Positions 33,267 through 62,664 of a stretch of DNA of 64,000 nt are shown in pieces. Where the stretch lies: the NCBI GenBank assembly GCA_963920575.1, contig OY986972.1:6274010-6338009 (forward strand). The letters are read 5' to 3'. Source of the stretch: Narthecium ossifragum (taxonomy: Eukaryota; Streptophyta; Magnoliopsida; Dioscoreales; Nartheciaceae). The notes under the pieces were generated by a model. That model made no database searches. It was not told the DNA's origin and was given only the letters and a program-made list of their open reading frames with translations. Made by a program: the position numbers and the translations under genes. Each line of letters begins with the position of its first letter. The stretch's first letter is position 1.

Positions 33267-34844
33267 TGATAAGACTTGAAAAGTGCACAAAACACCCTTG
33301 TAATTTGGCTTTGTTGGGCCCCGAGCAATGCTGGACTGACTACTTTTATTCCATTTCAGGTATAACAGGTCCTTCCACGAGTTAGATCAATTCTGGAGCT
33401 AAAACAATCTATTTTGGCGATTTTTGGCAAGCCAGATCGATCGGTCTCAACAGGTTCGATCGATCCAACTCAACCAACAAGGGAACGATCAACAACGGCT
33501 GGATCGATCGAACTTCAAGTGCCCGATCGATCCAGCAAGGGATGTAGCTTAACAACGGTGGTTCGATCGATCGGCCAAGTCAAGCCCGATCGATCCAGCT
33601 CGGGAGTTACCAGCAATAAAGGCGTAGGATCGATCGAACTCCAAGAGTTGGATCGATCCTGCTCGGGCGTTGCTCACAATATTAAGGGAGTTAAGGAGTC
33701 GGATCGATCGGGCTTCAAAGGTTGGATCGATCCGACGCGGCCAGAAGCAAAGATCGACGACTCTGATCTAATCCGGGGGTGGTTGTCTCTTGGGCTATAA
33801 GTAGTCATTGTTTAGGGATTTTATGGGGGCTTTTTCAGACGTTTTTGGAGGGAGTTTACCTATCTTTTCTACATCTTTTCTTCGACAATTCTTTGGAGGA
33901 GATCCATGGCGGGAGGAGATCATCAACTTCTACCGATGGATTATCCCCTGAAGATGAGTAGCTAAAACCCTAGCCATGGGATTCTTATGATGTAATTAGG
34001 GTTTTTACTAGGGATTTCTTATATCTAGGGTTTGTATACACGATTATTTGGTTTTATGGATAGATTATATTTGCCTATATCTTGGTGTTGTTTTCTTACT
34101 GGATGTTTGGATCGTTCTTGCTTGCACTTGATTCTAGAGCTTGTGTATGTTAGGGCGTGGATTGGATTCATCCAAATAAGAGGATCATGCTAGTCCCATG
34201 ATATCTCGGATGGAATCTTCTTCGTGATTAGGGATTATATAGTGCTAGTCCCACTATAGTAGTGCTAGTCCCACTACGTTCCATCCCTAATCTCTCATGC
34301 ATCTTATCGTTGTAGTTTTGGCCATCGAGATGCGAAGTCATCTCGATATTACACCTAAATCCATTTCTATGGCTTTGCTTGCGATGAACTCATCTGAGTA
34401 AGAGGGTTCATTAGCAGTGAACGTAACTAATCATTCGGTCACTAATATTTCGTTAATTGTTCTTGCCGACAAGGAATCCTAAACAAAACTTGTCGAGTGA
34501 TAATGAGAACTAGCCATTTCTTTATCAACTTTCAGGGAGCCATTTATCGTGTCTGCATGCCCTGATCTTTGGAAAACCTGGTAGATCCTTAGTTACTGAT
34601 TAAGAATCCTATGGTCCTTTCTCTCATATTCTTCAATCCTTTAGTATAGTTTTAGTTTAATTTTAACTTGCAATCTTTTCTCAACTTATTAGTAGGAGAT
34701 TTTCTAAGTATTTGATTTAAATCCCTGTGGACTCGACTCGGACTCTCCACTATCTACTAGCCCTTAGTAGTTAAAGTAGAGCACCGAAATATATTGTAAT
34801 TTTGGTCAGTCTTGTTAAGCCACGACACTTTTCAAGTCGTATCA
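33267..34844 (+). mobile_element. Solo LTR (gypsy-type family G1) inside the hAT-like element
   Basis: The LTR starts TGATAAGACTTGAAAAGTGC and ends CTTTTCAAGTCGTATCA. A 5-bp duplication, GCCCC, flanks it (33262-33266 and 34845-34849). Its length of 1578 bp, its termini and the block 'ctgtggactcgactcggact' match the 1583-bp LTR at 61082-62664 in opposite orientation. It holds ten GATCGATC sites in five pairs (33435-33732), ATCTAATCCG at 33766 and a TATA-like CTATAAGTA at 33795. No internal region is present. Confidence 0.93.
33435..33803 (+). promoter_or_regulatory. Paired-GATCGATC promoter module of the G1 solo LTR
   Basis: GATCGATC starts at 33435/33458, 33502/33525, 33565/33588, 33628/33651 and 33702/33725. 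The spacing within every pair is exactly 23 bp and the pair period is 63-74 bp. ATCTAATCCG follows at 33766-33775, and CTATAAGTA begins 29 bp after its start, at 33795. The order suits an LTR U3 enhancer plus core promoter. Confidence 0.6.
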
Positions 34845-35798
34845 GCCCCCGACCACTTTGCCGCACCCAAGCTTCACCGATCTCACCGTCGTCAACGACC
34901 CACCCACCTCATCGCCACGATCCAGCCACCTCGTCGCCGATCGCCCCGATCCACCCGATCCCCTTGGAAGACCTCCGCAAGCTAGGGACGGGCCGGCTCT
35001 ACGGTGGATCCACGGGGTCGGAGGAGGGTCACTGCACGCGAGGAGGGGCTCGGATCCGATGAGAGATGGGGTTGGCCCCCCCGCCGGAGTGCGTGGTGGT
35101 GGCCGTCTGGTGTAATGCTCTGACGAGAGATGAAGATGTCCGGTGTAGTGTGACTCCACATGATTTTTTTTTTGTTTTAAAGAACCGGGCCAGGCTCGGT
35201 CTAGTCCCGCTCGGTCTCCAAACCGAGCAAGGTCATACTGGGGCGGTCCAGGTGCAAGGCCTATTGGGCCCGGCACTAGCCCGCCCCCGTCCGGATGCTT
35301 ACCAGGGGCGGACTGGGTATTGCCTCCAACCCGGATCGGCCCGGTCGAGTTGGACACCCCTATTTCTCGATAAAAGAAAACAAAACATCGCATGTGAAGC
35401 ATTTTTTTCAACTTGGTGCAATACAATTGTTCCAATAGTCTTACACTCGACCCTATACTATTGTCAGACAAGACATACGAGGGATGACACATAAGACTTG
35501 TGACTCTGTGAGGACCCGTTCCTCTAAACTGGCTCGATAGCGTGGGTCGAGGGGCGTGCCATGTTGGCATGTTTCCACGTCGAGCATAATCTGTTTGATC
35601 GCATTGTTGATTTTGGACCCCAAGTGCAATTTGGTAAATTACATCTTGACGGTCGGTTTCACACCCACGTAGTGCACACATAGCCCAATGAATGATAAAT
35701 GTGCTTGTTAGAATCTTAGGCGAGCTTGGGAACGGAAGATCCGGGCTCAGACGTGACAGCTGGTTTTTGGGACATCTGTCAGTCCATGGACGATGGAC

Positions 35799-35859
35799 GA
35801 TCGATCGTTCAAGGGACGATCGATCGTTCAAGGGACGATCGATCGTTCAACGGACGATC
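35799..35859 (+). promoter_or_regulatory. GATCGATC repeats at 19-bp spacing in the G2 LTR
   Basis: Sites start at 35799, 35818 and 35837. A fourth, starting at 35856, is cut in half by the nested solo LTR. The repeated unit is GACGATCGATCGTTCAAGG. Downstream of the insertion the LTR continues to a TATA-like CTATAAGAACCCGCG near 39028, which in the nested copy reads CTATAAATAACCCGCG. Confidence 0.5.
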
Positions 35860-38800
35860 TGTCGCGCCCCGACCCGCGAAGGCCCACCCGGGCTGGGCAA
35901 CGCGAATCGGAACCTAACTAATGCGGAAAAATATTGGCGAGGGGTTCCCTCTAACCTACTGGTCTCCCTAAACAATTCATAAACACCCTTATATTACCAA
36001 GATTAACAACCTCAAAGAAATACAATATAATATTCAAATCCTCAAAAGGGTTTACATTTGTACAAGATACTCCCGTAGGAGACTATCTAAACAAAAGATG
36101 GGTAGACATATGATCACCGCTCCTCAAGTACCGCCAGACGCTGCCGCACCACCAAACACCTGCCCCGTAGGGCCTACTGAAGAAGAGCTGACGCCTACAC
36201 CTGCAAAACGCAGCTCCGGTAGGAGTGAGCATAAAGCTCAGTAGGGTTCTACACTACGACACACGGAAAGGGAGAGAACACAATAGTGTCGCCCCCAAGT
36301 AAAGTATGGGTGTACACATGGGCCCCATAACTCCACCGCGTGTCCCTGAGGTCCACGATCATGATCTTCCAGAAGAACTGGTCACATGATGGGTCACACT
36401 CAGTAAGCAAGAAAACAACACTGCCGACTCACTAGCAGGAACCCGACACTGCTGATAAGAAATGACATCGTTGGGAGGAAATGGCACCGCTGAGTAGGCA
36501 CTCCGTCTACTCAAGAGTCGTTATAATTAGACACCGGCTACACCTCAGAACCCGACTCGAGACAGACACGACCTCTAAATCATCGATCAAAAATATATTC
36601 AAGTCATCTAAGCCTATCATCGAAATCAACTAAATACTACATGTAACGCCCGACCCTCCACTGGGCCCCGGCCCGCGGGCTCCCGGTCCGACCAGGATCC
36701 ACCCGAGGGCCCCACCAGACACAATATTGTCCGCTTTTGGCTCACCGCAGAAATATGGGAAAACTTCCCAGTAGGTCACCCATCCCGGGACCGCTCCAAG
36801 GCAAGCATGCTTAACCTTGGAGTTTTCTGTCGGATCACTGCCAACATGGCTTTAAAACGCATTATGTCTATTAAGGGCTCACTATATACTTATATCGAAC
36901 CCCGGACCATACCCAGGCGTTGTGGGATTGCTTACCCGGCTACCCGACTTAGCCCCGCCCTCCAGGCGCAGGCATCTTGTCCCACGGTAGACCCAGCGGG
37001 CCTCACAATCCACCCCCCTTGGAGGCCCAGCGTCCTCGCTGGCACAATTTCCGGCTGAGAACCGGCTCTGATACCATACTGTAACACCCCGGCCCTCCAC
37101 TGGGCCCCGGTCCGACCAGGATCCACCCGAAGGCCCCACCCGACACAAATATTGTCCGCTTTTGGCTCACCGTAGAAATCTGGGAAAACTTCCCAATCGG
37201 TCACCCATCCCGGGACCGCTCTAAGGCAAGCACGCTTAACCTTGGAGTTTTTTGACGGATCACTGCCTACACGGCTTTGAAACGCGTTATGTCTATTGAG
37301 GGCTTACTATATACTTATATCGAACCCCGGACCATACCCATGCGTTGTGGGATTGCTTACCCGGCTACCCGACTCAGCCCCGCCCTCCAGGCGCAGGCAT
37401 CTTGTCCCACGGTAGACCTAGCGGGCCTCACACTACAATCCAACCTGGACCTTGCTACCCGCCACGGTCCTAGAGCTAAATCCGAGCTACCCGAAAGCCT
37501 CGGATCGGCGATCGACCCATCGCCCACGCCCTTTCCTTATGCATCTAATGCATTAACATAATGCATGCTATGATCATACCCAAGTAAGACTTAGACATGC
37601 AACAGTATGATAGGCGACACAAAAGTCTAACTGGATCGCTGCAGCGATACTACCAACCGCTGCCAACCAATCCACAGCGGGTCCCGGCATTACGACAGTA
37701 CCGCGACCGTCAACCACGGACTCCTGCAACGGGAAACAACCCCGAAAACTTAGATGAACATATAATATAATATTATATGTTCAACACATATAATATTATT
37801 AAAACCAACAAGATCCTCTAATTAGGGGCTAAGTGATCTCATTGATCCGGCATCCAAACAACATCAGATTCGAGATCCAACATAGACACCAGCAGATAAA
37901 CATGCTGCGATCAATTTATCCAAAATCGGGAAACATTCGACAGCTAGATTAACCGGAAAACACTAATCAAAATCACTAATCTCACTAATTACTTTTAATT
38001 GCTGCAACGTAGCCCATCCGTAGGAAAATCATAAAAAATCATAGAAAAAATAGAAAACTGTGAAACTGGTTGGGTCTGAGAGTATATTCAAATATCTACA
38101 ACTCTCAAGTTCATCATAAGTCCAAATAATGCACGTACACGCCGAAAAACACGCCGTAAATCGGCTGTTCTTCAAGAAAAGAGAAATCAGAAAATCCGAG
38201 TTTAAACATGTTAAAATCCTACTAAAAACTCAATCAAATCTTATGAAACTCTTATCAGTAATTAAGCTAAGCAAGAGGCACCCAACAAAACCAAGAACAC
38301 CTAGATCTACCGCTAGATCTAGAGAAAACCCCCTAAATAACCCAAGTAGGTAGAAACCTACCAGAAGCTCACTCCTCAGCTGTTTCCCCGCGGTATGGCC
38401 ACAAAGACGGCTTCAAACCAAGCCAATGATTTTCCTCTCACTACCACGAGTCCAACAAGCCTTCAAGCACCCAAAACGATGGCCGGAGGAGGGAGAACGT
38501 AGGGGAAGAAGAAGACAGGAAGCAAATCAGAAAAACAGGGGAAGTCGCGGGTTATTTATAGGCTCGAGTATCGATCGCTCCAGGGACTGATTGATTGGAC
38601 TGACCGGCTTAAGTCGGTTCGCGTCCTTATTCAGATACGTCATTCACCGACACAGGTCCGATCAAGGAGCGATCGATCGCACACGGGCCGCCAGCTGCCT
38701 AAAAATAGGCTTCTGCGCGGCCGAGCTTGGATCTTTCAATCCCAAGCCCGTCTAGGGTTCTAGCAAACGCATAAATCAAACATAGGAGCTATGTGTGCAC

Positions 38801-38918
38801 TACACGGGTGTGAAACAAACCGACAAGAAGCAATTTACCAAATTGCCCTTGCGGTCCACAACGAGCCACGGGCTCGACCCAAGCGGTCGACCCAGGAATG
38901 GAGGGACATGTCCTCACA
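35860..38918 (-). mobile_element. Nested solo LTR (family G2, reverse orientation)
   Basis: On the minus strand it starts TGTGAGGACATGTCCC and ends GGTCGGGGCGCGACA. The 5-bp duplication CGATC flanks it (35855-35859 and 38919-38923), and the insertion lies within a GATCGATC palindrome of the host LTR. Without the TRIM element nested in it, it is about 2.26 kb. It has its own GATCGATC-type sites on both sides of 38620 and the TATA sequence CTATAAATAACC near 38555. Confidence 0.9.
36642..37432 (-). mobile_element. Complete TRIM retrotransposon (791 bp)
   Basis: Two near-identical LTRs (37080-37432 as 5' and 36642-37007 as 3', minus strand) begin TGTGAGGCCCGC and end GTTACA. They enclose only about 72 bp. 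Three bases after the 5' LTR lies TGGTATCAGAGC (37065-37076), the primer-binding site for initiator Met tRNA. A purine tract, AAGGGGGGTGGAT, directly precedes the 3' LTR. The 5-bp duplication CTACA flanks it (36637-36641 and 37433-37437). The LTRs differ mainly by a 15-bp indel. It encodes no protein, so it must move with proteins from other elements. Confidence 0.95.
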
Positions 38919-41403
38919 CGATCGATCGGTCCTGAGGACGATAGATCAGATTCGAGGTCGGCACCGACGCTGACGTGTCCAGATAAGGATGCAAACAAAC
39001 CTAAAACCGATCGATTGGTCTCGAGTTCTATAAGAACCCGCGAGCAGCCCCTGTTTTTCTTTTTTCTTCTCTCTTCTCCACCGTTGCTTGGATCGCGGGG
39101 GAGGCTTGTTGCAGAGGCTTGGAGGGGGTGCCAACGAGTAGGGGAGTTAATCTAAACCTTCCCCACAAGGATTAATGGTGGATTAGCGTAGAACGATCGA
39201 ATTCTTCACTTAAGGCTAGTTTAGATGTTCTAGATTAATTGAATGCTTGATTCTTGGAGCTCGATAGGCGATCGGACGACCGACTTCCCTCCCATCGCAG
39301 TGGATCGTTGTACCCTGGGAGTTTTTTGTCTGAAGATCTAGAAAGCAAGGAGTGGTGGGCAAATAAAGCTTAAGGGCACAGTGTGGCACACTGGCCTCGA
39401 TCAAGCGACGTTTCTTCGTCGGATTTGTCTTCCTTCTCATTCATTCCTTTTTCGGATTAACGGTACGTGAAATTTATTTGTTTTGTTAAAACTGATTGTA
39501 AAGGATTACTTGCTACCATAGTAAAAGCAATAATCCTAGTTCTTATTTCCAACAGTAGACATGTTAGCTCGCTGAGACATATCCTGTCCCTATCTAATGT
39601 ATTTCCGGGATCGTCGCCAACGAGTAGGGGAGTTAATCTAAACCTTCCCCACAAGGATTAATGGTGGATTAGCGTAGAACGATCGGATTCTTCACTTAAG
39701 GCTAGTTTAGATGTTCTAGGTTAATTGAATGCTTGATTCTTTGATTAATCTATGCTAGATGATGCTTCTATGTATGCTTAATATATGATCGATGTTTGAT
39801 TGGATTTTTGTGGGATTTAATTCGAACTTAAGTTAGTTTTCCCTGATTTATTTCCGGATTTACGTTTTAATTAGAATAGCTATGTTTGACCTTGATTGCA
39901 GAACTTTACATGAATAATCTCAGTTGATATTCAACACGGACATTGTAGATCTCGGAGTGTTCTTTCGATTCCAACTGATTTTGTATTTTATCTATTTTTC
40001 TATGATGTTTTGCGATTTTTCTAGTGACTTGCGACGAGACCGATCTGAAGCTGTCTGAGCAGTGGATCGATCAATCCCAGGTTAGCCAATGGGGTTTTGT
40101 TGACCATTTTTTTTATGGTTTTCGAGGCTTTCTTCAATCCGATTTTTGAGAGGATCTTTGTGTCGATAAATTGAGTTAGCGTGATAGTTTTCCATGATTT
40201 TTGAAGTATTTATGCAAGGTTTATAGAAGGTTTAACTATTTGTTATGTTCTTGCATCTTATGAATTATAACAAGACAATAGCATGTTATATAAATCCAAG
40301 CCTATATTTATGTATTGTGTATATCTAAGCCCTATGCGAGGCTTGTGGTTGAACCAGGGCAGTCACGCCCCTTGGGCTGTGTAGAATAAAATATTCAACT
40401 ACTAGATTGTCTGTTAGCTGGGGTTGTATTCCTTTTGTAGAGTTTTGGTTGACGCCGTATTTACCGTCGTAATTTTGAAATCTACTCAATCGTTAATCTA
40501 GATTGTTTCCTTAGTCTCATGGAGACTTGTAGGCCTATTGTGCCTACTTACTTCCTTAATCTAGACCTTTGCTATGTTCACCCTTTGACGAGCTATATGA
40601 TGCGCCTAGCCCTGTGTATTATTTGGGATACTGTTGCATGCCTAAAAATCTTAATTATGCGTGTGTGAGCATACATGCATTTGATTGCATTAGAGGCATT
40701 GTAGGCTAGGCGTGGGCGATGATTGATCGCCGATCCGAGGGCTCAGGCAGCTCGGATCTAGCCGTAAGACCAAGATTGGGTAGCAAGGTCCATGGTTGAA
40801 TTGTTGTGATAATCTGATGTTATCGAGGTTAATGTTTAGTTGACTGCATTTACTTTGATTGAGGTGTAGATGTCGTCTCTGATTGAGCCCTTGGTTTGTG
40901 AGGGATGACTGTTAACAGTGGAGGTCATCAGAGTGTATGCTCTGAGGTAGACGGTATACGTAACGTGAGTTTTCTCCTAGAGATGAGATGGAACCTGAGA
41001 CTTTATTGTTTCCCTTCTTTTCAGTGTGACGCAGAATAGAATACTGCTGAGCTTATCCCTCACTCCTACCTAGGCTGCGTTTTGCAAGTGTAGGTGTCAG
41101 CTCTTGGTGGCGCGTTGACGTCCGGAAGTGTTTGAGGGCTTGGGGCTCAGTTTTTACTGCTAGACTGTACAAATGTATAATTTCCTTCTGTAAGGATTTT
41201 TTTTGAGATAGTTATATACATGCCTTTTGAGGATTAGTTATGTATCAGAAATCTTGTCTTATATTAAAGATTACAGTTTTGACCCCATATCGATTGGTTA
41301 ATTTAGATGTATTATTTTATTATAAATATGACATATATGAATTGAATAGATTTGGAATCCTCACGCCCCGGACCGGATGAGTTTTTTTGGTCGGGGTGTG
41401 ACA

Positions 41404-42955: not shown

Positions 42956-43103
42956 TAAAATACCGGCGAGCTCTTATTGATTCATTAATGGCAGTTTAAT
43001 CTACAAACATTCTGAATGGCCAACACAACATCTTATTTGTATTTGAAACCTTGAAGTTGTAATTGATACAATTACAAAACTCAAGTAGCACCATGCACAT
43101 AGT

Positions 43104-46100
43104 TTAGCCCGGAATGCGAAGGAGAAGTGGTACGAGATTGAAGGCATTTGGAGGAGCATCCCAAACAGAGAAAGCACTAGTAGAATTCATCCATTTGCTA
43201 GTGATATCCGGGAAGTGGCGATGGATGACATCCCTTAGGCTCTCAGTATTGTTCACCCACTCCAGGCCCTTCTTTGTATATGTCTTTTCGTTGAAGTAGC
43301 TTGTGAAGAAACGATCAGCTTCCAACCTCCTGTTATATATACATAGGTTGGCAAATGCTAGTCTTAGCCATCAATACTGCAAATATTAGTACGCAAATGA
43401 AACTACTGCATACAAATTGTTACGTACGCACCTGGATGCCATTATCACGAAAACAAAGAAAGCCGTCTCACTGATGGCGAACCCCTTAATCTTCTTCTCC
43501 GCCATGAGACCTACTAGAAGATCGAGCTTCTCGACGTCATCATGGTACAATTCTCTCAGTGCCTCAATTGCTTGCAAGTCATCTGTCAGGTCCTCCCACT
43601 TGGAGATGGGAATCATCAGAAGCCCCCTTCTGAACTGGTTGTACCTTGGCACGTTCCTCTCTCTGTCTCGGTAAACTGTTGTTTGAACAATATCGATCAT
43701 GCACAAAAACATGCAAATTAGTTGTCATAATTAATAGAAGGAATTAATATAGTCTCTATTCGATCTATACCTTCGAGAGCAGGCAAGTCAACATGATCAG
43801 GTCTCATTGTACCATCAAGATTATCTGGGATGACATCTCTGAAGAACAAAGGGTAGTTCCAGAGCTCAAGAGCGCCGCATGCTTGGTGGCCCATCGACAC
43901 GATTTGCCTCTCGAATCCAATTGAATCTAAACGCGATTCTCCATCTCGACCAAGGAGCTCCTCTATCTTGATTCTACACACAATTAAAAATGCTTCAAAA
44001 GCTAATTAAGCAAGCAAGCAAGAACATGTACAGAGAGAATAAGATATTAAGATTGTAGCATTAATTAGTTAGCAGAGCCTGTGTTTAATTAATTATGACT
44101 TACTCTTCGAGCAGTGGTGGAGATTTATTTGGTCCGGGCCTAGAGTTGATGTTTCGAAGTTGAAGGTTGTCTGGCATAAGGGAATGCATTCGATAAACCC
44201 CGACAAAGTCTTCTGTCAAGGAATATGGAACTCCATGGTTCTCTGGTTTCTTCAGTCCCACAAGGCCTCCTAGGATCGGTCCACCTACATGACCAAATAT
44301 ACTCTTGAACTTCTTCCCCAGCAAACCATACCAATTTGCATGCATTGCTGCATTCAGAGTATCGGTTTTCAGGAGCTCCACAGTCCAATCAATGGTGTGA
44401 ATCTTGGCGATCACTGCGGAGGTCACAAGCCTTGCCTGGTGGTACAACACCTCGTCTTTTAGATGGGGACTTTCCTTCTGTATGTACACATGCATGCATT
44501 GAAGAATATTAGTGTATCAATTAGATCTCACGTACATCAACGTACGTTTATGCATGACTGTTAACAGTTTGTTTGTAGAAGGTGATGCAAATGTAGGTAC
44601 GTATAGTAGGTACCTTTAATGCATCACAAACAGCATTGTGCTCCTTGACGAAGAGGGCTTGCAAGAGGGAAACTCCTGCCCAACTGTTACGTATGTCTCC
44701 AGATATTGGTCTTCCATCACTGTCATGCTGAAGCAAATTATTGTCTCCAATCTTCAGCTTACCATCAATGAAGGTCCTTACTTTTGATCCCGTCGTTGCA
44801 TTATTACCATAGATAACACTTCCATCCCTTCATACATTCATAATTAAAGTAAAAAGAGTAATTAGCATGAATCAGGTTAATTAGATGAAGGCAATAACAA
44901 GAGCAACGGAAAAAAAATGCCATGTTAAAGTGATACAGCTCCTGCATCACTAGCTAGCTCGGTGTATGTAGCGAACAAAACAGGCCGGCCAAACCTTTTG
45001 AATTACTTACCACCAAGGTGTTCTTGCGTTCAAATGTCCAGTTTTAATCCCTTCAGCATGAGTAGGAACCTCTTTGGTCTTGAAGAACTTGAAAGATTTG
45101 TATGGGCATTCGCCAGCAACTTCATTCGGAGCCGTAATTTCCAACTGCACAGATAAAATGAAAAAAAAGGGGCTTATTTCAGAGGCAAATAATTAACATC
45201 CATCATAGCTAATTAAAGTTAGCACTAATAAAATATGTGGGACAACTTAATTGGCGGTTAAATCGCCTCCTTTCGGTTTACATGCAAATGCTTAATCACT
45301 AATTAACCAAATCTATATATTTTTTACTTTAAAAACAAATGGCTTTTCTTAGCTAGGAATTGGTAAACTACGGTGAATTGGATATTCTTCAGTCAGATCC
45401 GAAATTCTAGTCAATTCAAAAGTACATAATAATTATCCGGTTAATAAGTTAATTACTTACAAGGTGAGTCACGTTCTCGCTTTCTCATATCTTCAACTTA
45501 TCTCCTTAATTGGGTGATCCAAACTACTTACGCTACCTGGTGACTTTTCCTCGTAATTAATATTCCAACTTGGTGGCTCATTCTCACCTTCTCCATATTT
45601 TTAAAATTTAGTAGCATCACGTCAGATGATATTTCTATACGTCCATATATAATAGGACCATAACTATATCAAAATGGTGAGTGGAGCTAGGGAGTCGCGA
45701 GGAAAAGGGAATATTCGAATATTCTTGAGGCAGCTGCGAGCTACTTGCAGTATTCAAAGAAAATACAATATTAGTTTAACTTATTTATTCTACAACTGGA
45801 ATTATACTTGTTTAATAACAAGTTGCTCATTAGTATAACTGTTTAGTTTCAGCTCTAGTCAGCATTTAATTGCCTCCATTATCACTGATAAAGTATTATA
45901 TTTTTATATTGAAGAGTTTTTGCAACCCATGCAGCCTCGGGGCTTAGGCTTAATTAATCAAAAAATTAAAAAAGAAAAAGAAAAAGGAGGAGGGGGGAGG
46001 ACATGCATTTAATTGCCTCCATTATTAATGATAAAGTATATACATAAATATATATAATTAAAATGTATATATCCTGCTGTTAATTAATTACCTGTTGGGT

Positions 46101-46878: not shown

Positions 46879-46933
46879 GGCTATAGCTAGCTTGATTTCT
46901 GAGAAACTAGAAGGATCAGCTCTCTATTAGACT

Positions 46934-46936
<3 letters not shown>

Positions 46937-46976
<40 letters not shown>

Positions 46977-47181
46977 GTTGGAGAGGACGGTGGATAGGCA
47001 TTGCCATCATAGGTGTGCATTGTTGACGTTAAAGCATGAAATTTGTAATTTTCTAAAGAAAAGCCGAGATTGACTTTGAATGTAGGAAGGACGCTTGATT
47101 GATTGGAGTTGGGTTCTCAAAGAAGGATTTAAACCGCATGATATATCTAATTTTTTTTTTTTTTTTAATGAGATGAGTCAA
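46937..47181 (-). promoter_or_regulatory. Putative alpha-DOX promoter with TA repeat and two W-box cores
   Basis: An uninterrupted TA repeat (46937-46973) lies 60-95 bp upstream of the start codon and can serve as the TATA element. W-box cores TTGACT occur at 47070-47075 (plus strand) and at 47176-47181 (minus strand). Alpha-DOX genes are known to be induced by pathogens and WRKY factors, so these sites are plausible, though the motif is short and common. Confidence 0.35.
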
Positions 47182-53800: not shown

Positions 53801-54180
53801 CGATATACAATATAAGGATAGGAAATCACTTTCAAGTATTGGGCCTTGCGCACCTAACAAGTTCTTTACATTAATTCTTTAGATCACAATAATAAACGGT
53901 CATGATTGAGCAACAATTGATATTAAAACCCACAAAATTTTTATTTTAAACAAAAATAGAAAAGTATCTATTAAAATAAGTACTGTTCTTTCAAATATGT
54001 TTTTTACTATTATTATTTTAGAAATATCATTATAACACCTTCAAGCCAATGTGGCATAGAGGAGAGAGTGTAAATATTAGTTCTTTTATATCGGGAATGC
54101 ACGATATTCAAGGAGTTATATTCAAGCAGTGTAAATGGTTACATGGAATGAGATAGGAAATGAGCTTATGATAGGAAATC
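50900..54180. other. Intergenic region without a supported gene
   Basis: Positions 51650-51950 carry the longest open frame (97 codons), with no recognised domain. Positions 52430-52700 resemble the transcribed leader of a retroelement in composition, but no ends were found. A GA microsatellite lies at about 53626-53643. I see no RNA gene. Confidence 0.45.
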
Positions 54181-54189
54181 TATTGGGTG

Positions 54190-54592
54190 ATCGTATTCCC
54201 TAAATTTAGAGTTAATGAATGGAGATAGGGAATTCGTTGAACTTGTCCTCTAATTTCTTCCATAAATCTTTCGCTGAAGTCTCCCTCATTATAAAATATT
54301 TCTAATCCCTTGCCAAACAAAACCTGATAGTTCCACAAACCAGACGATTTATTTTCTTCCAATCTTCATATGACATCTACTCAGGCTTCTTTTCCAATGT
54401 TATGTCTAGTTCTTGCTAGAACAAGACATCCAAGACCTCACACTTGGTATTCGAAACTGTAGATCTGGTTGTCGGTGTAGATTTTGAAGACCTTGACGGT
54501 GTCGACGTCGAAGATGAATCCTCAGACATCTCCTCGATGTGGATGATGAATCAATTTCAATACCCAGATCTGAACCTCGCTCTGATACCGCT
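54190..54592 (-). pseudogene. Copia (Ty1) gag fragment
   Basis: Just inside the LTR at 54593 lies a primer site reading CGGTATCAGAGC (54579-54590), one base off the canonical Met-tRNA site. A minus-strand frame then starts at 54529 (MSEDSSSTSTPSRSSK). After stops and shifts it gives the copia gag block: LEKKPE, MSYEDWKKINRLVCGTIRFC, LARD and ETSAKDLWKKLEDKFNE. Homology ends near 54190, so pol and the 3' LTR are lost. Confidence 0.85.
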
Positions 54593-55282
54593 TGTTGCGC
54601 TAGAAGGCACACCCAATGCAAAAATCCACCAACAATCGAGAAGGAAAAATAACCACACCAACAAACCCAAACAGTAAATACAGCATTTGGGGGAGAGGAA
54701 GTAGAGAGCATACCAAAGGACATAAGGATTTACGTGGTTCAACAATAGCCTACATCCACGGGTGGTACGGCGAGGCCAATCCACTAATCAAGATGAAGGA
54801 GTACAAATAAGTGCAAAAGCCACTCTCTACAACTCTCAAGCTCTCTCCAAAACCCTCTTATTTCCCCTCTTTTTTTTAGGGTTATAAAACACTCTATTTA
54901 TAGCCTCCAAATAGTCCAAACCCGGATTAGATATGAGTCCTAGATTTTCCCATCTAATAAGGGAAGATCGATCCACCTAAAGCAAAAGATCGATCTTCTA
55001 TACTTGAGACGTGAGGCGTTGTTTACATCTCGAAGAAGATCGATCCCCTTATAGAGGAAAGATCGTTCTTTGCATGAAGAAGATCGATCCACTCTTAGAG
55101 GAAAGATCGATCTTTTCAAAACTTACTCTCTGCCACCTCTGTCTGCATTGAAAGATCGATCGTACATGGCAGTAAAGCTCGATCTCTTAAACGGTGCTTT
55201 CTGTTACTCTGTCTGCAATGAAAGATCTATCTTACATGGCAGTAAAGATCCATCTCTTGTTGAAAACGAGCCAAAATCAACA
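54593..55282 (-). mobile_element. Copia 5' LTR with paired-GATCGATC module
   Basis: The inner edge is clear: the minus-strand LTR ends GCGCAACA, followed by the primer site. The outer edge is placed at TGTTGATTTTGG (55282), but it merges with CLASSY coding sequence and may lie up to 40 bp away. The LTR holds the TATA sequence CTATAAATAGAG (about 54892-54903) and five GATCGATC-type pairs. The outermost pairs share a 70-bp tandem duplication. The insertion truncates the CLASSY-like pseudogene. Confidence 0.75.
54895..55254 (-). promoter_or_regulatory. Paired-GATCGATC promoter module of the copia LTR
   Basis: Plus-strand site starts are 54966/54988, 55038/55061, 55082/55105, 55154/55177 and 55224/55247, giving spacings of 22, 23, 23, 23 and 23 bp. 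In four pairs one or both members are one or two bases off GATCGATC or less. On the minus strand ATCTAATCCG starts at 54932 and CTATAAATA starts at 54903, exactly 29 bp apart. Confidence 0.6.
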
Positions 55283-56600
55283 GTATTCTTGTTTTCCTCG
55301 ATCTTCTCAACAATGCTCTTTTGATAAGGGAGAAGATTCGGATAAATATAGCATTCCCTCAAACCAGGTAGAGTATCAAAGATATTGCCTTTATAAACAT
55401 GCATGAAAGGTTTAATCATGGTCTTAAGCTCTTCCAAAAACTCCAAATTGTCATCAGGAGAAGAATTATGTAGATTTTCCCATGTGTCTTTTGAGTACTC
55501 ATTTCCCTTGTCTAGTGAAAACCCCTTCCTTTGACATGCTTTTGTCATTTTAGATGAGATGCCTTCCACAAGTTTAGGTCCAACGAAACGCAGAGAGTTA
55601 TAAAATTCCCTTAGATTATTATGAAAAAGTGTTCCAGAAAGGATGATCCTCTGCTCAGTTTTTACTTTTTCTATAGCCTGCCAAATGAGACTCCTCTCAT
55701 TCCTTGGTGTATGCCCCTCATCAAAGACAAATAAGCCTGGCTTCTCAAGGAGGATTTTAGTGAATTCCGAACCATTCTTCTCCTTGGATGTCAGCATCTT
55801 GAAGAGACTATAGCTTATATAAGAAGGATGCTATTACCTCTGGACCAATACAATAGCTTCAATAATCTCATCCACCTCTTGTCTTGTGGCTTGTTCACAA
55901 CTACCGGACTCTCTCATCATCTTATCTTCATTTCCTGAATAGCCTATTGAATTCAAATTATGGATCAAATGGTTAAGACCCAATCTTCTTGCTTCTTCTT
56001 CCCATGCATCAATCATGCCCTTAGGTGCAACAATCATAGGCCTCCGCTCATGTAAAAGCGTCAAATAACTATGAACAAATACAAGTGAAAGCCGTGTCTT
56101 TTCGGTCCCTGGTGCATGTGCAATCACGCAACCGCCAACAGTATTAGAGTTAGTGCATGTGTCTTCAACTCTTCAAGGTTGATTCCACTAGCAAGATTTT
56201 TCCACATGAACTCAAAAGCTTCTCGCTGATGTGGATACAAAGCCTCACTGATATCATTTGAAAGAAGGTCCCAAACTATTTCATCTCCATGGATGCAGGA
56301 ATCTTGTCCTTTATCCTTGTCTCCAATCATGGAGAAGTCATTCATAAATTGGAGGCCCTCATCAAAAGCTGCAACCTTCTTGCTTGATCTTCCCCTGTCG
56401 CGTGATACCTTCAAAACAAACATATAATCACTAGACAATGCCAACTGAAGTTAAATAAGAAAGTCAGAAATGAGGATGTAATGAAATGACATACCAAATT
56501 TGGCAGAACATACTTGATTTCTAGGGTCACTAAAGAACAAAATTTGCATTTGATGCCAATCTGCTCATCAAGAACAAATTCGTGCTTTCCTCTAGGTCAA
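55283..56600 (-). pseudogene. CLASSY-like SNF2 chromatin remodeller, broken and truncated
   Basis: Two exons are visible. Exon 56495-about 56600 reads HEFVLDEQIGIKCKFC, then EIKYVLPNL. Exon 55283-56408 reads VWDLLSNDISEALYPHQREA, GGCVIAHAPGTEKTRLS (helicase motif I), MIVAPKGMIDAWEEEARR, PGLFVFDEGHTPRNERSLIW (motif II, DEGH) and RIILSGTLFHNN. This order is that of plant CLASSY proteins, nuclear Snf2 factors that recruit RNA polymerase IV for RNA-directed DNA methylation. Damage: a stop upstream of HEFVL, a frameshift at about 56124-56140, a frameshift and stops at 55825-55835, and motif I GTGKT changed to GTEKT. The C-terminal helicase half is missing, cut off by the copia LTR. It cannot encode a working ATPase. 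Confidence 0.88.
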
Positions 56601-56728
56601 GTAGAATGATTTGCTTCAACTTCTTGAATATTGATCCCTTCTGCTTGATTATGCATGCAATTTTGTAATTGTATGAACATAAGCTTTGACCATATAGATA
56701 CTAGAATTTAAACCATCATTTCGTCACT

Positions 56729-56732
<4 letters not shown>

Positions 56733-56807
<75 letters not shown>
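56733..56807. repeat. TA microsatellite, about 75 bp
   Basis: An uninterrupted TA repeat upstream of the visible CLASSY-like exons. The surrounding 56610-57470 has no other feature that I can support. Confidence 0.95.
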
Positions 56808-56809
<2 letters not shown>

Positions 56810-57479
56810 CCATTAACAAACTTAAGGAGCATATATTAAGAAAATGGACATAGCTGTACAACCAGGCTCAAATAAACATAACTGACAAATTCAGAAGATC
56901 AATATACTTATTATCTTGTTCGAAGTGGTTTCTAGACCCACTTAATGATTTTGTTAAATTCAGTGGTTATAAAGTACATCTAAGATGGTAGAGTTTGAAA
57001 CTCAATCAAATAATTGCATGTCGACAAAAAGTTTCTGAAGTGATCAACTCAAATTTATCCATCATGTGACAAATGGAAAAAAGGAATAAAGGGCACATTT
57101 GGCATACATTCACTGCATTTTTAAACCATAAAAGGCAGCATCCATTTATTTGTAAGACTGTACATATTTCTTGAGGTTTGTCTTCAGTACATATTTGCTG
57201 AAGGTGGTCTCTCAGATGCAGGTTTTAGGTTTCAAACCTAAGAAACTAAATTAGACTTGAATGGAAGTAGAAAATATGACATGAACATGCTTCCTGCTGT
57301 AGAAGGCTTCATGCTTGGATGGAATAGAAGGGAACTATCAGTTTCACAAGCTGGTCATGTATGAATGGGACAAAGGAGTTTTAGTTTTCATGCTCAACGG
57401 ACCCACATATTGGAAAGTTTTGACCAGCAATTGAAGCTAACAATAACGTTGATTTAATAATGTATTTTAGGATATTTTG

Positions 57480-60400
57480 TTTTTGAATAGTTCAGCCCGA
57501 AGGCTATTACAAAATACAACTACAGTTACAATAGACCATTCAAGGCAGCCCTACCATCTTCTGGAACCCACATAAACAGAGTTCTGAGACGGCGACATGA
57601 CCTTGCAATACTATCAGCTATTGTATTACAAGTCCTAGGAATATGCAAAAAGACAACAGAGTTAAAATCCAAAATCTCCTTCCAAATATTCCTCCCTATC
57701 GACTCAACCTCCATCGGCCACACTCTAAATCCATTCATGATTTGCACATCCATCATGGAGTTTGATTCAATCACTATTCGTGAATACACCTCTGCTTTAG
57801 AGAACATCAATGCCATCTCCATAGCCATTACTTTCGCAAACAAAACAGAGCTCGCCGCAACCGGCGAGCCCATCGCCCATTCTACCTCATCATCTGGACC
57901 TACACAAACAACACTAACTGCTGCTCCCTTTGAACCCGGATCAAAAGCCGCATCAACATGCACAACAATCCCATGTGGCCTTGGGTCCCTCTGCACCTTA
58001 TCAAACCTCTTGTAGAACTCCTGTGCCTGTCTTCGAATCCTACGATACAACACCTCGGCCGTCTCTCCTCCCTCGCCAAAGATAATCTGATTTCTATCCT
58101 TCCATATAACCCAAGCCGCATAGCTTATAAATGTCTTCATAGCTTTCACACGTCCATTGCTTGATGAGGAGAACAATATTTCCAACCTCTCCTCTGGTTC
58201 CCCATCAAGCCTCGGCAAGTGTTCTTTAACAGCAATTGAGGCAAATATCTGTTGAAAAATAGGGCATTCAAAGATTGCATGAGCAATAGTTTCCGAAGCT
58301 TGACGACACCTTGGGCAATCCTGTTTAGAGGCACCACAAAACCTCCAAAGGCTCTCTCTTATCGGCAATCTCCGATGTAATACTTTCTAAAGAAAGTGCT
58401 GGACTCGTGGCCCAATCGATAGCCTCGTGACCATACTCCATCTCTCATCTTGGCTTTGATTCCCCACCCGCCTTCCTATCAAGTATGTATAAGAAGATCT
58501 TGTAGTAACCTCCCCTCCATGAGCCCAACGAACCCGATCCCTCCTAGCAATAGGAATCTGAACAACTCTTTGAAGCATAAGAGGATGACATAGATCCACC
58601 AATCTATCAGAGTTCCAATTCCGCTCAACAATGAAATCGCACACAACGGCCTTGCAAAGCCCATCTCCATCATAAAAACCTGGATTCATGCTGAGAGCCA
58701 CATCATCTATCCACACATCATATAGGAAGCTGATTTTACTATTCTCCCTAGCTGAACAAACAAGACCACCTCTAAGTTCATCCACTGCCTGACATAGTGC
58801 CTTCCAGTGTGCCGAGACCAACCAAGGTCTCAAGTTTCTTGTTGACGGCAAAATTTCCTCCCATGGGTACTTTGCGGCAGCTAGGCTCTTCCAAACATTA
58901 TTTTTTAGGCTCAAGAAAGCAAGCCATCCTTCTCATTTTGAGTGCTATTTGCCAATCTCTGAACTTTCGTACCCCCAAGCCACCCACCTCACGTGGCATG
59001 CAAATTTTTCTCCATGCAACAATGCTAAGCCCAGAACTACACCCATGCCAAAGAAACTCCCTACAAATCCCCTCCATTCGTTTAATAACTGCAATAGGAA
59101 CTTTGGTGGTAGCCATAGCATAAACCGGAATACTTTGTAGCACAGACTTAAGAAGCACTAGGCGCCCCGGATAAGAGAAAGCCTTGCTTTGCCATGAAAG
59201 GACTTTTGACATCATTGAATCCAACACCAATGAGAAGTCCGCAGCTCTAACTCTTTTGTCAGTCAAAGGAACTCCTAGGTAATTCCATGTGCCCACCGCT
59301 TCCTCAATCCCTAGAATGTTGCAAATAGCCAACCTCTCATCTTCAAGAATTCCGAGCGAAAATTGAATGCTAGACTTAGCCGGGTTCATCTCCAAACTCG
59401 ATAGAGACTTGAAGAGTATCATTCTCTCTTTAATCTTTTGAGCCTCTAAACATGTAGCCTTTTGTAACAAAGAGGCAATCATCAACATATAGTAGGTGAG
59501 AGATTGAGAAATCCGATCCTCGAAATTGCAAACCATCCAAACCTTCACACGGATCCTTGAGGGCCCGGGACAAGACCTCCCGGACAAGCAAAAATATGTA
59601 TGGGGACAATGGATCACCTTGGCGAATGCCACATTGGGAGCCCACCTGCCCATGGAGCTTCCCATTAAGAATGAAGGAAAACCTTGGGCCAATCACACAG
59701 CTCATCACCCACCCAATCCACCTTCCCGGAAAGTTCATTCTTCTCAATGTTTATTGGAGGAAAGGCGATCAGACTTTATCATAAGCGGACCTCAAATCTA
59801 CTTTAATCACCATCAAGCTTTGGGTCCTAGGAGCAATCCTCATAGAGTGGATAATCTCCTTAGCAGAATCAATGTTGTCATGAATAGAACGACCGGTAAG
59901 GAAAGCCGATTGTTCAATACCAATAAACTCATCAAGAACACCTTGCATCCTCCGGGCAATGATCGTAGTTATAATTTTATACCCAACATTACAAAGGCTT
60001 ATTGGCCAATAATCTTTCAACTTCAAAGGAAATTGGCACTTGGGCACAAAGGATATGAAGGTTTTATTCCAAGAAGAAGGGAGATGGCTTGCTCGAAAAA
60101 AATGTTGTACAACCCCAACAAGATCATGCCCAACTACCTCCCAAAAATTGACATAGAAGTAAACCGGGAATCCATCCAGCCCCGGGCACTTACTCCGGCC
60201 CATACTAAAGACAACCTCCTTCACTTCCTCCACCGACACCTTTGCAAGCAAAGCCTCATGCAATGACTCATCAAGTCGTGGCAACTCCGGGAAATGTTCG
60301 AAATTTGAATTGTCTCCAACCTCCGTCGAAAGTTTGTGAAAGTAGTCTCCAAATATGTGACCAATCTGCACTTGCTCAGTAACAGGATCCTCCTCCCCAT

Positions 60401-60690
60401 CCGGAATGATTGCAACTACTTTGGACTTGTGCTTGCGAGAGGACACAATCTTGAGGAAAAAAGCTGTATTGCGATCACCCGCCTTCATCCAATCAACCCT
60501 GACACGCTGCACAACCCTCATCTCCTGCTTCTCCAGAACTTGTTCCCATTGGTCCTCTAGTTCTTTCAATTGACTCTCACCTTTCAGCTGTAAGGAGTTC
60601 CTCATCCTCCTTCCTGTAGAGTTGCTCCAAACATCCTTTTAGCATCTTGCCCACGCCAAAGATGTCCTCTCCAAAAGCCAAAGTTATGGT
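57480..60690 (-). mobile_element. L1-type LINE, 5'-truncated, with broken ORF2
   Basis: On the minus strand the order is: RT N-terminal block (VDWMKAGDRNTAFF, about 60490), fingers/palm (SKCPGLDGFPVYFY, VIKVDLRSAYDKV at 59770), HLLYVDD (about 59480), NYLGVPLTDKR, the zinc-binding domain (CPRCRQASETIAHAIFECP, about 58300) and an RNase H domain ending at 57526 (HVDAAFDPGSKGAAVSVV, ESNSMMDVQ). Several frameshifts separate the pieces, so it is inactive. The 3' end has the hairpin AGCCTTCGGGCT and an A-rich tail (about 57480-57510), normal for plant L1. The endonuclease domain expected upstream is missing. Confidence 0.9.
57526..60660 (-). pseudogene. L1 ORF2: reverse transcriptase, zinc finger and RNase H, frameshifted
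   Basis: Open pieces lie at 59769-60605 (RT fingers and motif A), 59430-59747 (IRQGDPLSPYIFL and YVDD), 58898-59692 (thumb), 58387-58914 (connector) and 57526-58368 (zf-RVT plus RNase H). Motif A ends exactly where the frame shifts (59769), which splits the palm. The C-terminal RNase H frame of 280 codons is the best preserved part. Confidence 0.88.
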
Positions 60691-61058
60691 TCTCCATGGA
60701 TGAATCATAAGTAGATGAATGCAGCGAGATATCTAATGATCTAACTAATGCAGTACGAGAATTCTTGAATTCTTGCAGAGTAATATCTAAATCAGAATCT
60801 TCGTCCACATTCATTCATTCATGACATCACCAGAACAACCAAGGTTTAGAGATACTCACAGTGCTATCTCGGAGAAGCTTTGACTGATGCTCCTTCTCCG
60901 CTTGGAAGGTGCTTCGTCAAAGTCCCTAATGCACGATCAGAAAGATAGGAAATATTAGCACTGGTACTATTTTTGGTCTTTTATATAATAAACGACAGAA
61001 ATAAAGATACTAATTGAAATAAAACTACACTAGGCAATAAACTTAATAAACCGTTAGT
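60690..61058 (-). other. Unresolved segment between L1 and gypsy-type primer site
   Basis: The minus strand carries two short readable stretches: DFDEAPSKRRRSISQSFSEIA (about 60865-60930, preceded by an AG and followed by GTGAGT) and MNVDEDSDLDITLQEFKNSR (from 60814). They could be the start of the gypsy-type element's internal region, or leftover exons of the CLASSY-like gene. I cannot decide between these. Confidence 0.35.
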
Positions 61059-61075
61059 CCCCGGCAACGGCGCCA
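61059..61075 (-). other. Primer-binding site TGGCGCCGTTGCCGGGG
   Basis: It lies six bases inside the 5' LTR end on the minus strand. This sequence is a widespread primer site of plant Ty3/gypsy elements, which is why I call the LTR gypsy-type. No gypsy polymerase is present to confirm it. Confidence 0.8.
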
Positions 61076-61081
61076 AAATTC

Positions 61082-62664
61082 TGACACGCCTTGAAAAGTG
61101 TCGTTACCTTAACAAGGACGCCAAAATTACAAATTTATAATGATCAAACTACTAACTAACTACTTTATGGGTAGATAGTAGCAAGTCCGAGTCGGTCCAC
61201 AGGGAAAACAGGATTAAGTCTAATTACCGTGCATAGTTCTAAATCAAAGGTTAAGGAAGATGGATGATAGTTGGTCTTTAAACTACCTTTAACTCGAATT
61301 AAACTTAATCAGGAGAATAACAATAAGAGAAAAGGCTAGGAAGTTCTAATCCGTAATCGAGAGCTATTTAGGCATTCCTAGGATAAGAGCAATTCAATAA
61401 GTTCAAGATGGTTTTCTAAGGTTGATAGAAGATCGGCTAGGTCCACTATCACTCAACATAGATTCATTAGAAGCCTACGTCGGCATGAAGATCAATTCAG
61501 CGGATGATTGGTAGGAAAATAATCAAAGTGGTTCTAGCACTTTGAGATCGCCTAATCAACAAAGATAAAGAATGCATTGTAGGTTACAATCATAGGTCTT
61601 AATGGTTCTAGCATTAAGGTAGTGGTTCTAGCACTCCTACAATCATAAGCTAGGGTTTAGAATCCAATCCAAAGATCTAACATGGTTCTAGCATGAAAGC
61701 AACTTGAATAAGTCCTAATCCTAGCCTCTAACATGCAATACTCAAAACCAGCGATCGTAATCTCAGCGTAACTTTCACATTCGAACTCGAAACGAGGTGA
61801 TTCAAGATTCGTTGGAAAGCTAAGACAAAGATCTACGACTTTTGTGTTTTGAGTTTTCACAAAATCCGGCTGTATATCCACTGAAAAACCGAGATAAGAC
61901 AGACCGAAATTAGGGCACAAAGAGCAAACAACACATTCACCATAAGAAATATTACCAATAGATATATAAAATCCGAATTTAATCCATTAAACCATCATAA
62001 AGTACATGCTCTGATCCATAGGAAAACCGAAATAAACTCCCTATTACATCATAGAATTTCCTAGAATAAAGATTTAGCTACTCATCTTGAAGAGACGATC
62101 CATCGGGGAAGGTTGATGACGCGCTCCCGCCATGGATCTATCTTCAAGACCTAACCCTAATGTTTATTGAGGAAAAAGAATCAAGGAAACACCCAGGAGG
62201 AGAAGAAAATTCGTCTATGGGTGGCTGCCAAAAATCCTCTCCTAACACCTATTTATAGGCCTTAATAAAACCCTAACTCGGATTAGATCTCAGCCCTTTA
62301 TTTTTCTCCCAGCATCAAATGAGATCGATCTCCATAGGGAAGAAGATCGATCTCCTTCGTTCTGCGAACTCTGGATCTGGAATACGCCCGACCAAGATCG
62401 ATCTCCTTCAGGATGAAGATCGATCTCCTTTGCTTCGACTGGACCGCTTCTTGCTGGAATAATGAGATCGATCTCCTTCAGGATGCAGATCGATCTCCTT
62501 CACCCAGGATTGCCCGAATCACTTCGTTTAAGCACCAAACTTGATCTAACCTTCGTTGAAGGCTCTTATACCTGAAATGCACCATAGACCATCAAAATAG
62601 CCTTGCTCGGAGGCTAACAGGACCTAGTTAAAGGGGCGGTTTGTGTACTTTTCAAGCGTTATCA
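61082..62664 (-). mobile_element. Gypsy-type 5' LTR (family G1), 1583 bp
   Basis: The minus-strand LTR starts TGATAACGCTTGAAAAGTAC and ends CTTTTCAAGGCGTGTCA, followed by the primer site at 61059-61075. Ends, length and the block 'ccctgtggaccgactcgg' match the solo LTR at 33267-34844. It contains a TATA sequence CTATAAATAGG (start 62258 on the minus strand), three GATCGATC pairs and many 'ggttctagca' repeats (61530-61690). The interior and 3' LTR are missing beyond about 60690. Confidence 0.9.
62250..62495 (-). promoter_or_regulatory. Paired-GATCGATC promoter module of the G1 LTR
   Basis: Plus-strand site starts are 62323/62345, 62396/62418 and 62466/62488. The spacing is exactly 22 bp in all three pairs, and the pair period is 70-73 bp. 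On the minus strand ATCTAATCCG starts at 62288 and CTATAAATA at 62258, 30 bp apart. Confidence 0.6.

What the first reader, a model, noticed from the sequence alone, without database searches (positions are those of the whole stretch)
33435..62495. Shared promoter-like module in LTRs of different families: paired GATCGATC, then ATCTAATCCG, then TATA at fixed spacing
Three LTRs carry the same arrangement: the copia LTR at 54593-55282, the solo G1 LTR at 33267-34844 and the G1 LTR at 61082-62664. Each has pairs of GATCGATC palindromes with an in-pair spacing of 22 or 23 bp (13 of 13 pairs, allowing one- or two-base variants in copia) and pair periods mostly 63-74 bp. Downstream follows ATCTAATCCG, then CTATAAATA or CTATAAGTA after 29, 29 and 30 bp. 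Copia and gypsy-type LTRs normally share no U3 sequence. This suggests a common host factor that binds two palindromes about two helical turns apart, or transfer of a promoter cassette between families. I know of no described element with this layout.
Basis: partly seen in the sequence, partly recalled or inferred. Interest (0 to 1): 0.88.

Follow-up and report, generated by a model that had tools for sequence, protein, structure and literature searches.

The report
Switching palindrome code in plant retrotransposons
In this plant genome, unrelated families of jumping genes share one promoter layout built from paired GATCGATC palindromes, and the letters beside the palindromes change together at nearly all sites when a family changes type, which suggests that they follow the taste of an unknown DNA-binding protein.

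Summary
GATCGATC-N14/15-GATCGATC occurs 52,674 times in the 379-Mb plant genome, against 10 for the reversed control. All 13 pairs claimed for the window exist. Carriers include a copia element with gag (L028) and a Ty3/gypsy element with pol (L017), plus a third LTR group without TATA at that place.

In 19 copia- and gypsy-group clusters the TATA box starts 62-65 bp after the last exact palindrome in 18; the exception has one more palindrome with one changed base, after which the distance is 63. The stretch between is alike across the two superfamilies.

Homologous LTRs 67-73% identical elsewhere may differ at nearly all shared sites (1/10, 0/9, 0/8, 1/11 identical) or keep them (12/13). Sites of one array hardly agree 7-10 bp away, so duplication is a poor explanation.

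Best reading: enhancer arrays read by a dimeric factor, probably host-encoded, with family-specific taste. Closest known: Sirevirus palindromic repeats and VANC/VANDAL motif coevolution. Binding is untested.

The parts
33267..34844 (+). Solo LTR, TG...CA ends, 5-bp duplication GCCCC on both sides (33262-33266 and 34845-34849); gypsy group by alignment
33435..33732 (+). Array of 5 exact GATCGATC pairs, spacing 23
33766..33775 (+). ATCTAATCCG, 33 bp after the last palindrome
33795..33803 (+). CTATAAGTA (TATA box), TATAAG starts 63 bp after the last palindrome
54593..55282 (-). LTR of the copia group (by alignment to L012, L031, L032); PBS-like stretch at 54579-54590
54966..55254 (-). Array of 5 GATCGATC pairs at 22 or 23 bp, 2 exact, 3 with one changed base in one or both members
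54923..54932 (-). ATCTAATCCG
54895..54903 (-). CTATAAATA (TATA box), 63 bp after the last palindrome
61082..62664 (-). LTR of the gypsy group; PBS-like stretch of the Arg type (label recalled) at 61059-61074
62323..62495 (-). Array of 3 exact GATCGATC pairs, spacing 22; flanking base T on 12 of 12 arms
62279..62288 (-). ATCTAATCCG
62250..62258 (-). CTATAAATA (TATA box), 65 bp after the last palindrome

Best explanation
These are U3 promoter modules of LTR retrotransposons. Each array is a platform for a sequence-specific protein that reads GATCGATC plus 1-4 bases on each side as a dimer. Two dimers sit about two helical turns apart (22/23 bp) and activate transcription from the TATA box 62-65 bp downstream, together with factors on the proximal ATCTAATCCG-like element. 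The core is the contact common to all families. The flanking bases are read by variants of the factor that differ between families, so a lineage that changes partner changes nearly all its sites. The factor is most likely a family of host transcription factors, because unrelated superfamilies use the same core; GATA-type factors with a GATC core are one candidate. Shown: abundance, spacing, fixed position before TATA in two groups, sharing across superfamilies, concerted switching of flanking bases. Inferred: binding, dimerisation, activation, host origin.
For: 52,674 pairs against 10 in the control. TATA at 62-65 bp in 18 of 19 copia- and gypsy-group clusters, and 63 bp in the nineteenth if its one-mismatch last palindrome is counted. 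Copia gag after an array-bearing LTR in L028; gypsy pol before one in L017. Flanking base shared by sites of one array: agreement 0.64 and 0.67 at positions 1 and 2 against 0.28 and 0.37 shuffled, 22 arrays, 157 sites. Near-complete switches between homologous arrays: 1/10, 0/9, 0/8, 0/6 identical at position 1 with backgrounds 0.68-0.73, position 2 often kept (10/11, 8/8, 6/6); repeated in loci fetched later: 1/11 and 2/9. Excess spread of identity over 58 LTR pairs falls from 7.5 at position 1 to 1.4-1.5 at positions 5-6. T on all four arms in 6,478 pairs. A rice study links predicted GATCGATC-like promoter motifs to GATA factors with a GATC core (PMC6918188, passages).
Against: No binding, expression or methylation data. 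Some arrays are mixed (L035, L036, L033, L027), and switching in the third LTR group is often partial. That group and L042 have no TATA box at the usual distance. The 58 pairs share LTRs and are not independent. Only the all-T type was counted genome-wide. A factor with one fixed taste would not explain the code; that several paralogues with different taste exist is assumed.
Confidence: 0.6

Rival explanations
1. The factor is encoded by the elements themselves, as VANC is by VANDAL transposons: an activator or anti-silencing protein coevolves with its own arrays, and the core is shared by descent or capture.
For: Target motifs in tandem arrays that diverge together are reported for VANC (PMC5735166, passages). 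Family-specific codes here look alike.
Against: The core is shared by copia and gypsy elements. L028 holds only a gag frame between its LTRs, and L017 shows no frame of 110 residues or more between pol and its LTR; other internal regions were hardly seen, so this is weak.
Confidence: 0.2
2. Origin by cassette transfer: the stretch from arrays to TATA was moved between copia and gypsy LTRs by recombination or template switching. This concerns origin and can be true together with the best explanation.
For: Cross-group identity between palindrome and TATA exceeds column shuffles (0 of 500 in each of three stretches) and ends at TATA (55 of 500 after it).
Against: Identity is only 0.39-0.47, and shuffles do not allow for relatedness within groups. 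Strict spacing rules for the same factors could give the same picture by convergence.
Confidence: 0.4
3. The pairs act as hairpins or cruciforms, or as small-RNA sources, rather than as protein sites.
For: Spacer ends are complementary far above shuffles: positions 1-4, 176 of 272 against 104, 0 of 2000 shuffles. Maize Sirevirus palindromes are described as small-RNA hotspots (PMC5311732, passages).
Against: Permuting arms within arrays gives as much site symmetry (95 observed, 100.6 expected at position 1), so the complementarity follows from the array-wide code. Switches at all sites of an array are not needed for single hairpins.
Confidence: 0.08
4. Neutral history: each array grew by duplication from one founder palindrome, and the code is a founder effect.
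For: Repeat units about 71-73 bp long are recognisable in some arrays.
Against: Sites of one array agree only 0.27-0.30 at positions 7-10 (shuffled mean 0.26-0.27, maximum of 200 0.28-0.30). Homologous arrays differ at nearly all shared sites while the rest is 67-76% identical.
Confidence: 0.06

Closest known systems
Palindromic repeated motifs (RMs) of Sirevirus LTRs (Bousios et al. 2010, PMC2829016; section 9 and passages read)
   Same: Palindromes repeated many times in the upstream half of the LTR, before a TATA box; constant core with element-specific further bases (CGG-CCG; Tnd-1 has ACAATCGATTGT).
   Different: Sireviruses are one copia genus and the RMs are reported as specific to it. 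Here the core is GATCGATC, carriers are copia and gypsy, palindromes come in pairs at 22/23 bp at a fixed distance from TATA, and flanking bases switch together.
VANC targets of VANDAL transposons (PMC5735166 passages; PMC10398659 abstract and outline)
   Same: Short motifs in tandem arrays of non-coding regions that diverge together between related copies, taken as coevolution with a sequence-specific protein.
   Different: VANDALs are DNA transposons that encode the protein; here the carriers are LTR retrotransposons of at least two superfamilies with one common core and no known protein.
Stress-responsive U3 repeats such as the BII boxes of Tnt1 (recalled, no call)
   Same: Repeated cis elements in U3 that drive LTR transcription through host factors.
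   Different: Other sequences, single families; no paired palindromes or flanking-base code known to me.
Predicted rice promoter motif GATCGATC / MTCGATCN (PMC6918188, passages)
   Same: Same octamer; the paper points to GATA-type factors with a GATC core.
   Different: Single motifs in host promoters from computation; no pairs, no LTRs in the passages seen.

Membership tests
LTR retrotransposon U3 promoter | Array lies in an LTR, upstream of TATA, with PBS and retroelement genes next to the LTR | tested here: met
   L028: LTR, PBS-like stretch, copia gag, second LTR. L017: gypsy pol before the LTR. Window LTRs with PBS-like stretches. Transcription start not tested.
Sirevirus RM arrays | Palindromic motif in many copies in the LTR, upstream of TATA | tested here: met
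Sirevirus RM arrays | Carrier is a copia Sirevirus | tested here: not met
   L017 has gypsy pol. Whether the copia carriers are Sireviruses was not tested.
Sirevirus RM arrays | CGG-CCG core | tested here: not met
   Core is GATCGATC; the Sirevirus Tnd-1 is an exception in the source too.
VANC/VANDAL system | Tandem target motifs that diverge together between related copies | tested here: met
VANC/VANDAL system | Carrier is a VANDAL DNA transposon | tested here: not met
   The two carriers with genes read are LTR retrotransposons.
VANC/VANDAL system | Element-encoded protein binds the motif and removes methylation | not testable with these tools
   No protein identified; no methylation data.
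Site of a dimeric transcription factor | Protein binds the palindrome and the pair, and activates transcription | not testable with these tools
   Needs binding and reporter assays.

The most novel reading that the evidence does not exclude
Copia, gypsy and further LTR retrotransposons of one plant all depend on one family of dimeric DNA-binding proteins and are partitioned by a lock-and-key code in the bases beside a shared GATCGATC core. Lineages of different superfamilies switch key repeatedly and independently at nearly all their sites, as in an arms race or a sharing-out of paralogous factors.
Probability: 0.45. Interest if true: 0.9.

Novelty: new variant of a known kind. Interest (0 to 1): 0.82.

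Why it matters
Palindrome arrays in LTRs have been described for one copia genus, and coevolving motif arrays for one group of DNA transposons. Here both features occur together across superfamilies, in tens of thousands of copies, with a readable code. That makes the question of how retrotransposons keep or change their activator directly testable: four probe types that differ by one base pair on each side predict which protein, or which paralogue, serves which family. The near-complete switches also give a record of regulatory change in selfish DNA.

Tried and rejected
Hairpin reading: spacer covariation looked strong but follows from the array-wide flanking code. Founder reading: disfavoured by weak agreement at positions 7-10 and by switched homologous arrays. 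ATCTAATCCG as the defining element: the palindrome-to-TATA distance is more constant. Species identification from two host exons failed: hits of 83% identity at most, no close plant. The lineage of the third LTR group (recalled likeness to Del/Tekay) is not proven. Genome-wide counts of the other flank types, of mixed pairs, of palindrome-ATCTAATCCG spacings and of copia RT places were not obtained: the server was busy.

Literature: searches for GATCGATC with LTR and retrotransposon, GATCGATC with promoter and palindrome, palindromic motif with U3 region, convergent LTR binding sites, Sirevirus palindromes, promoter-block oligomers and palindromic with copia and gypsy gave listings only, except for the papers named here. 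In PMC5288721 the octamer is a sequencing junction (passage). PMC6918188: passages. PMC5311732: passages. The maize Sirevirus palindrome paper PMC4728375 is not held. Only open-licence papers can be searched.

Rows dropped before counts: one search used 81 distinct of the 100 pairs listed, which are only the first places of contig C1; one search used 2, and later scripts 1, of the 8 overlapping loci L001-L008; one search kept 22 of 30 clusters after removing near-duplicates; one search used 58 of 94 group-internal LTR pairs (score at least 120, at least 3 shared sites, background between 0.60 and 0.86) and at least 4 arms per position; one search left out L024b and the second LTR of L028. The five loci were chosen from places printed, so their spacer sequences were known beforehand. 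My notebook says 33.5 kb for and 17 of 18 for TATA; the right figures are 33.0 kb and 18 of 19.
Full report
WHAT WAS CLAIMED AND WHAT IS THERE. The window (64 kb of a 379.4-Mb genome in 150 contigs, 13 of the 15 that I asked for being of chromosome size) contains three LTRs with GATCGATC pairs. All 13 pairs are present with 22- or 23-bp spacing, and the ATCTAATCCG-to-TATA distances are 29, 29 and 30 bp. Ten pairs are exact; none of 100 shuffles has any. The genome holds 52,674 exact pairs; the same pattern read backwards has 10. In 18 fixed-coordinate 10-kb stretches I counted 80 GATCGATC against about 2.4 expected; 9 of 18 have an exact 22/23 pair. Two host exons match flowering-plant proteins (LCAT-like; alpha-dioxygenase) at 83% identity or less; the species was not identified.

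THE CARRIERS. I fetched about 247 kb of loci, some overlapping. L028 has two LTRs with arrays (two aligned pieces, 90.6% and 93.3% identical), a PBS-like stretch after the first, and an open frame with the copia gag domain (Retrotran_gag_2, E 4e-34). L017 has an open frame with protease, RT, RNase H and, after them, integrase, the Ty3/gypsy order, followed by an array-bearing stretch alike in L018, L024 and L001. LTR alignments tie L031, L032, L037, L012, L043 and the window LTR at 54.6-55.3 kb to the first (group I, copia), and L001, L018, L024b, L013, L019, L029, L036, L039 and the window LTRs at 33.3 and 61.1 kb to the second (group II, gypsy). A third group (L021, L022, L025, L027, L030, L033, L035, L038) has LTRs that begin TGTGAGGA; six copies (one each in L025, L027, L030, L033, L035, L038) have two arrays, the first about 210-305 bp and the second about 685-1140 bp into the LTR; an initiator-Met-like PBS follows in L021, L025 and L030 (PBS labels recalled). 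L034, L024a, L040 and L041 align with this group; L042 aligns with nothing held.

GEOMETRY. Among 42 clusters of three or more exact palindromes, 19 belong to groups I and II. TATAA(A/G) starts 62-65 bp after the last exact palindrome in 18. In the nineteenth (L024b, 86 bp) a palindrome with one changed base follows 23 bp later, and the distance from it is 63. An ATCTAATCCG-like element (up to 2 mismatches) stands at 33/34 bp in 12 of 19. Anchored on TATA, 7 group I and 10 group II LTRs resemble each other between palindrome and TATA (identity 0.39, 0.47 and 0.45 in three stretches against 0.26, 0.27 and 0.32 with shuffled columns, 0 of 500 each), but not clearly after TATA (0.30 against 0.27, 55 of 500). 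Shuffling columns does not allow for relatedness inside a group. Other words enriched in arrays are CGCCCGA and CTCTGTC (each in 9 of 22 arrays; the most frequent 7-mer in 30 shuffles reached 6).

THE FLANKING CODE. Read outward from the core, the bases beside GATCGATC are family-specific and much the same on all arms of an array: A on 25 of 26 arms of L032, T on 10 of 10 of L029 and 12 of 12 of the window LTR at 62.3 kb, C on 10 of 12 of L028, G on 17 of 22 of L001. Over 22 arrays (157 sites) agreement between sites of one array is 0.64, 0.67, 0.42, 0.47, 0.33, 0.31 at positions 1-6 and 0.27-0.30 at positions 7-10; shuffled among arrays the means are 0.28, 0.37, 0.29, 0.37, 0.33, 0.26 and 0.26-0.27. 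Agreement at position 6 (0.311 against a maximum of 0.284 in 200 shuffles) and 10 (0.300 against 0.298) is still slightly raised. Symmetry of single sites is no greater than the array-wide code predicts (95 against 100.6 at position 1), so the spacer complementarity follows from the code and is no sign of hairpins.

CONCERTED SWITCHING. In alignments of homologous LTRs at shared core sites, the base beside the core is often either kept or changed nearly everywhere. Changed: L028 against L032 1/10 identical (background 0.72, position 2 10/11), window copia LTR against L032 0/9 (0.68), L019 against L029 0/8 (0.72, position 2 8/8), L019 against L013 0/6 (0.73, position 2 6/6). Kept: L031 against L032 12/13 (0.72). 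L029 and the LTR at 61.1 kb keep position 1 (10/10) and differ at position 2 (2/9). Loci fetched afterwards agree: L043 against L031 1/11 and L032 2/9, against L028 and L037 11/12; L041 against L035 1/10, L030 15/18, L033 9/9, but L027 6/15. Over 58 of 94 group-internal pairs the departure from background identity (chi2/dof) is 7.5, 3.6, 2.4, 2.6, 1.4, 1.5 for positions 1-6; at position 1, 18 of 54 pairs are at or below 25% identity and 7 at or above 85%, the rest between. The pairs share LTRs, so no P value is given. Genome-wide, 6,478 of 52,674 pairs have T on all four arms. With the sampled T frequency of 0.33 (104 of 314 arms) independence would give about 1.2%, some 630; that frequency need not hold genome-wide. 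The other types could not be counted.

RESULTS AGAINST. Some arrays are mixed (L035, L036, L033, L027, the window solo LTR). In the solo LTR the mixture is ordered, inner arms G 8 of 10 and outer arms C 8 of 10; in L035 it is not. Switching in the third group is often partial. At 91% background identity L036 and the LTR at 61.1 kb differ at 4 of 8 arms, a switch under way or plain looseness. L042 and the third group lack TATA at the usual distance. No binding protein is known.

MECHANISM. A constant core with array-wide flanking bases that change together is what a sequence-reading dimeric protein of variable taste would impose. Spacing of two helical turns, clustering and fixed distance to TATA make activator sites the simplest reading. 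A host factor family is preferred because copia and gypsy elements share the core. GATA-type factors are a lead only: a rice study cites GATA12, GNC and GNL as binding a GATC core and predicts GATCGATC-like promoter motifs (PMC6918188, passages). An element-encoded, VANC-like factor remains possible. Binding, activation and host origin are inferences.

RELATION TO KNOWN SYSTEMS. Sirevirus LTRs hold palindromic repeats upstream of TATA with a constant core and element-specific further bases (PMC2829016, section 9 read); VANC targets are tandem motif arrays that change together (PMC5735166, passages). The present system works like both and is a member of neither by the tested features. The searches showed no description of paired GATCGATC arrays or of concerted flank switching across superfamilies; they cover open-licence papers only and most listed papers were not opened.

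Noticed in passing
window 55207-55830, - strand: Open frame with an SNF2-related domain (E 3e-11) overlapping the end of the LTR 54593-55282; the LTR probably sits in or beside a chromatin-remodeller gene (likeness to CLASSY recalled).
   Followed up: no
window 33267-34844 and 61082-62664: Both LTRs end in inverted repeats of about 19 bp (TGATAAGACTTGAAAAGTG.../...CACTTTTCAAGTCGTATCA in the solo LTR), much longer than the usual TG...CA.
   Followed up: no
window 43389-44516, - strand: Exons of an alpha-dioxygenase-like gene (An_peroxidase).
   Followed up: no
window 57526-60638, - strand: Frames with a reverse transcriptase domain (RVT_1), probably a LINE, next to the LTR at 61082.
   Followed up: no
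window 35799-35844: GATCGATC three times at 19-bp period in a short tandem repeat; not the paired module.
   Followed up: partly
window 36723-37437: Direct repeat of 290 nt, 93% identical, start spacing 425.
   Followed up: no
L017:7941-9965, - strand: 675-residue frame with a plant mobile domain (PMD, E 1e-36) beside a gypsy LTR with the array.
   Followed up: no
L012:803-3528: Array, TATA and LTR end about 0.8 kb upstream of a 2-oxoglutarate dioxygenase gene on the same strand: a possible LTR promoter near a host gene.
   Followed up: no
L028:584-3322: Short copia element with two LTRs and only a gag frame between them.
   Followed up: partly
L021:7957-8209, L025:3746-4000: The first array of the third LTR group is bracketed by an inverted pair TTTCTGG.../...CCAGAAA (seen by eye).
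   Followed up: no
arrays of L001, L027, L028, L030 and others: Words CGCCCGA and CTCTGTC recur between the pairs, each in 9 of 22 arrays; they may be sites of partner factors.
   Followed up: partly
L042:438-713: An array of a family not aligned with any other here, flanking bases C then A on 14 of 16 arms each, a further flank type.
   Followed up: no
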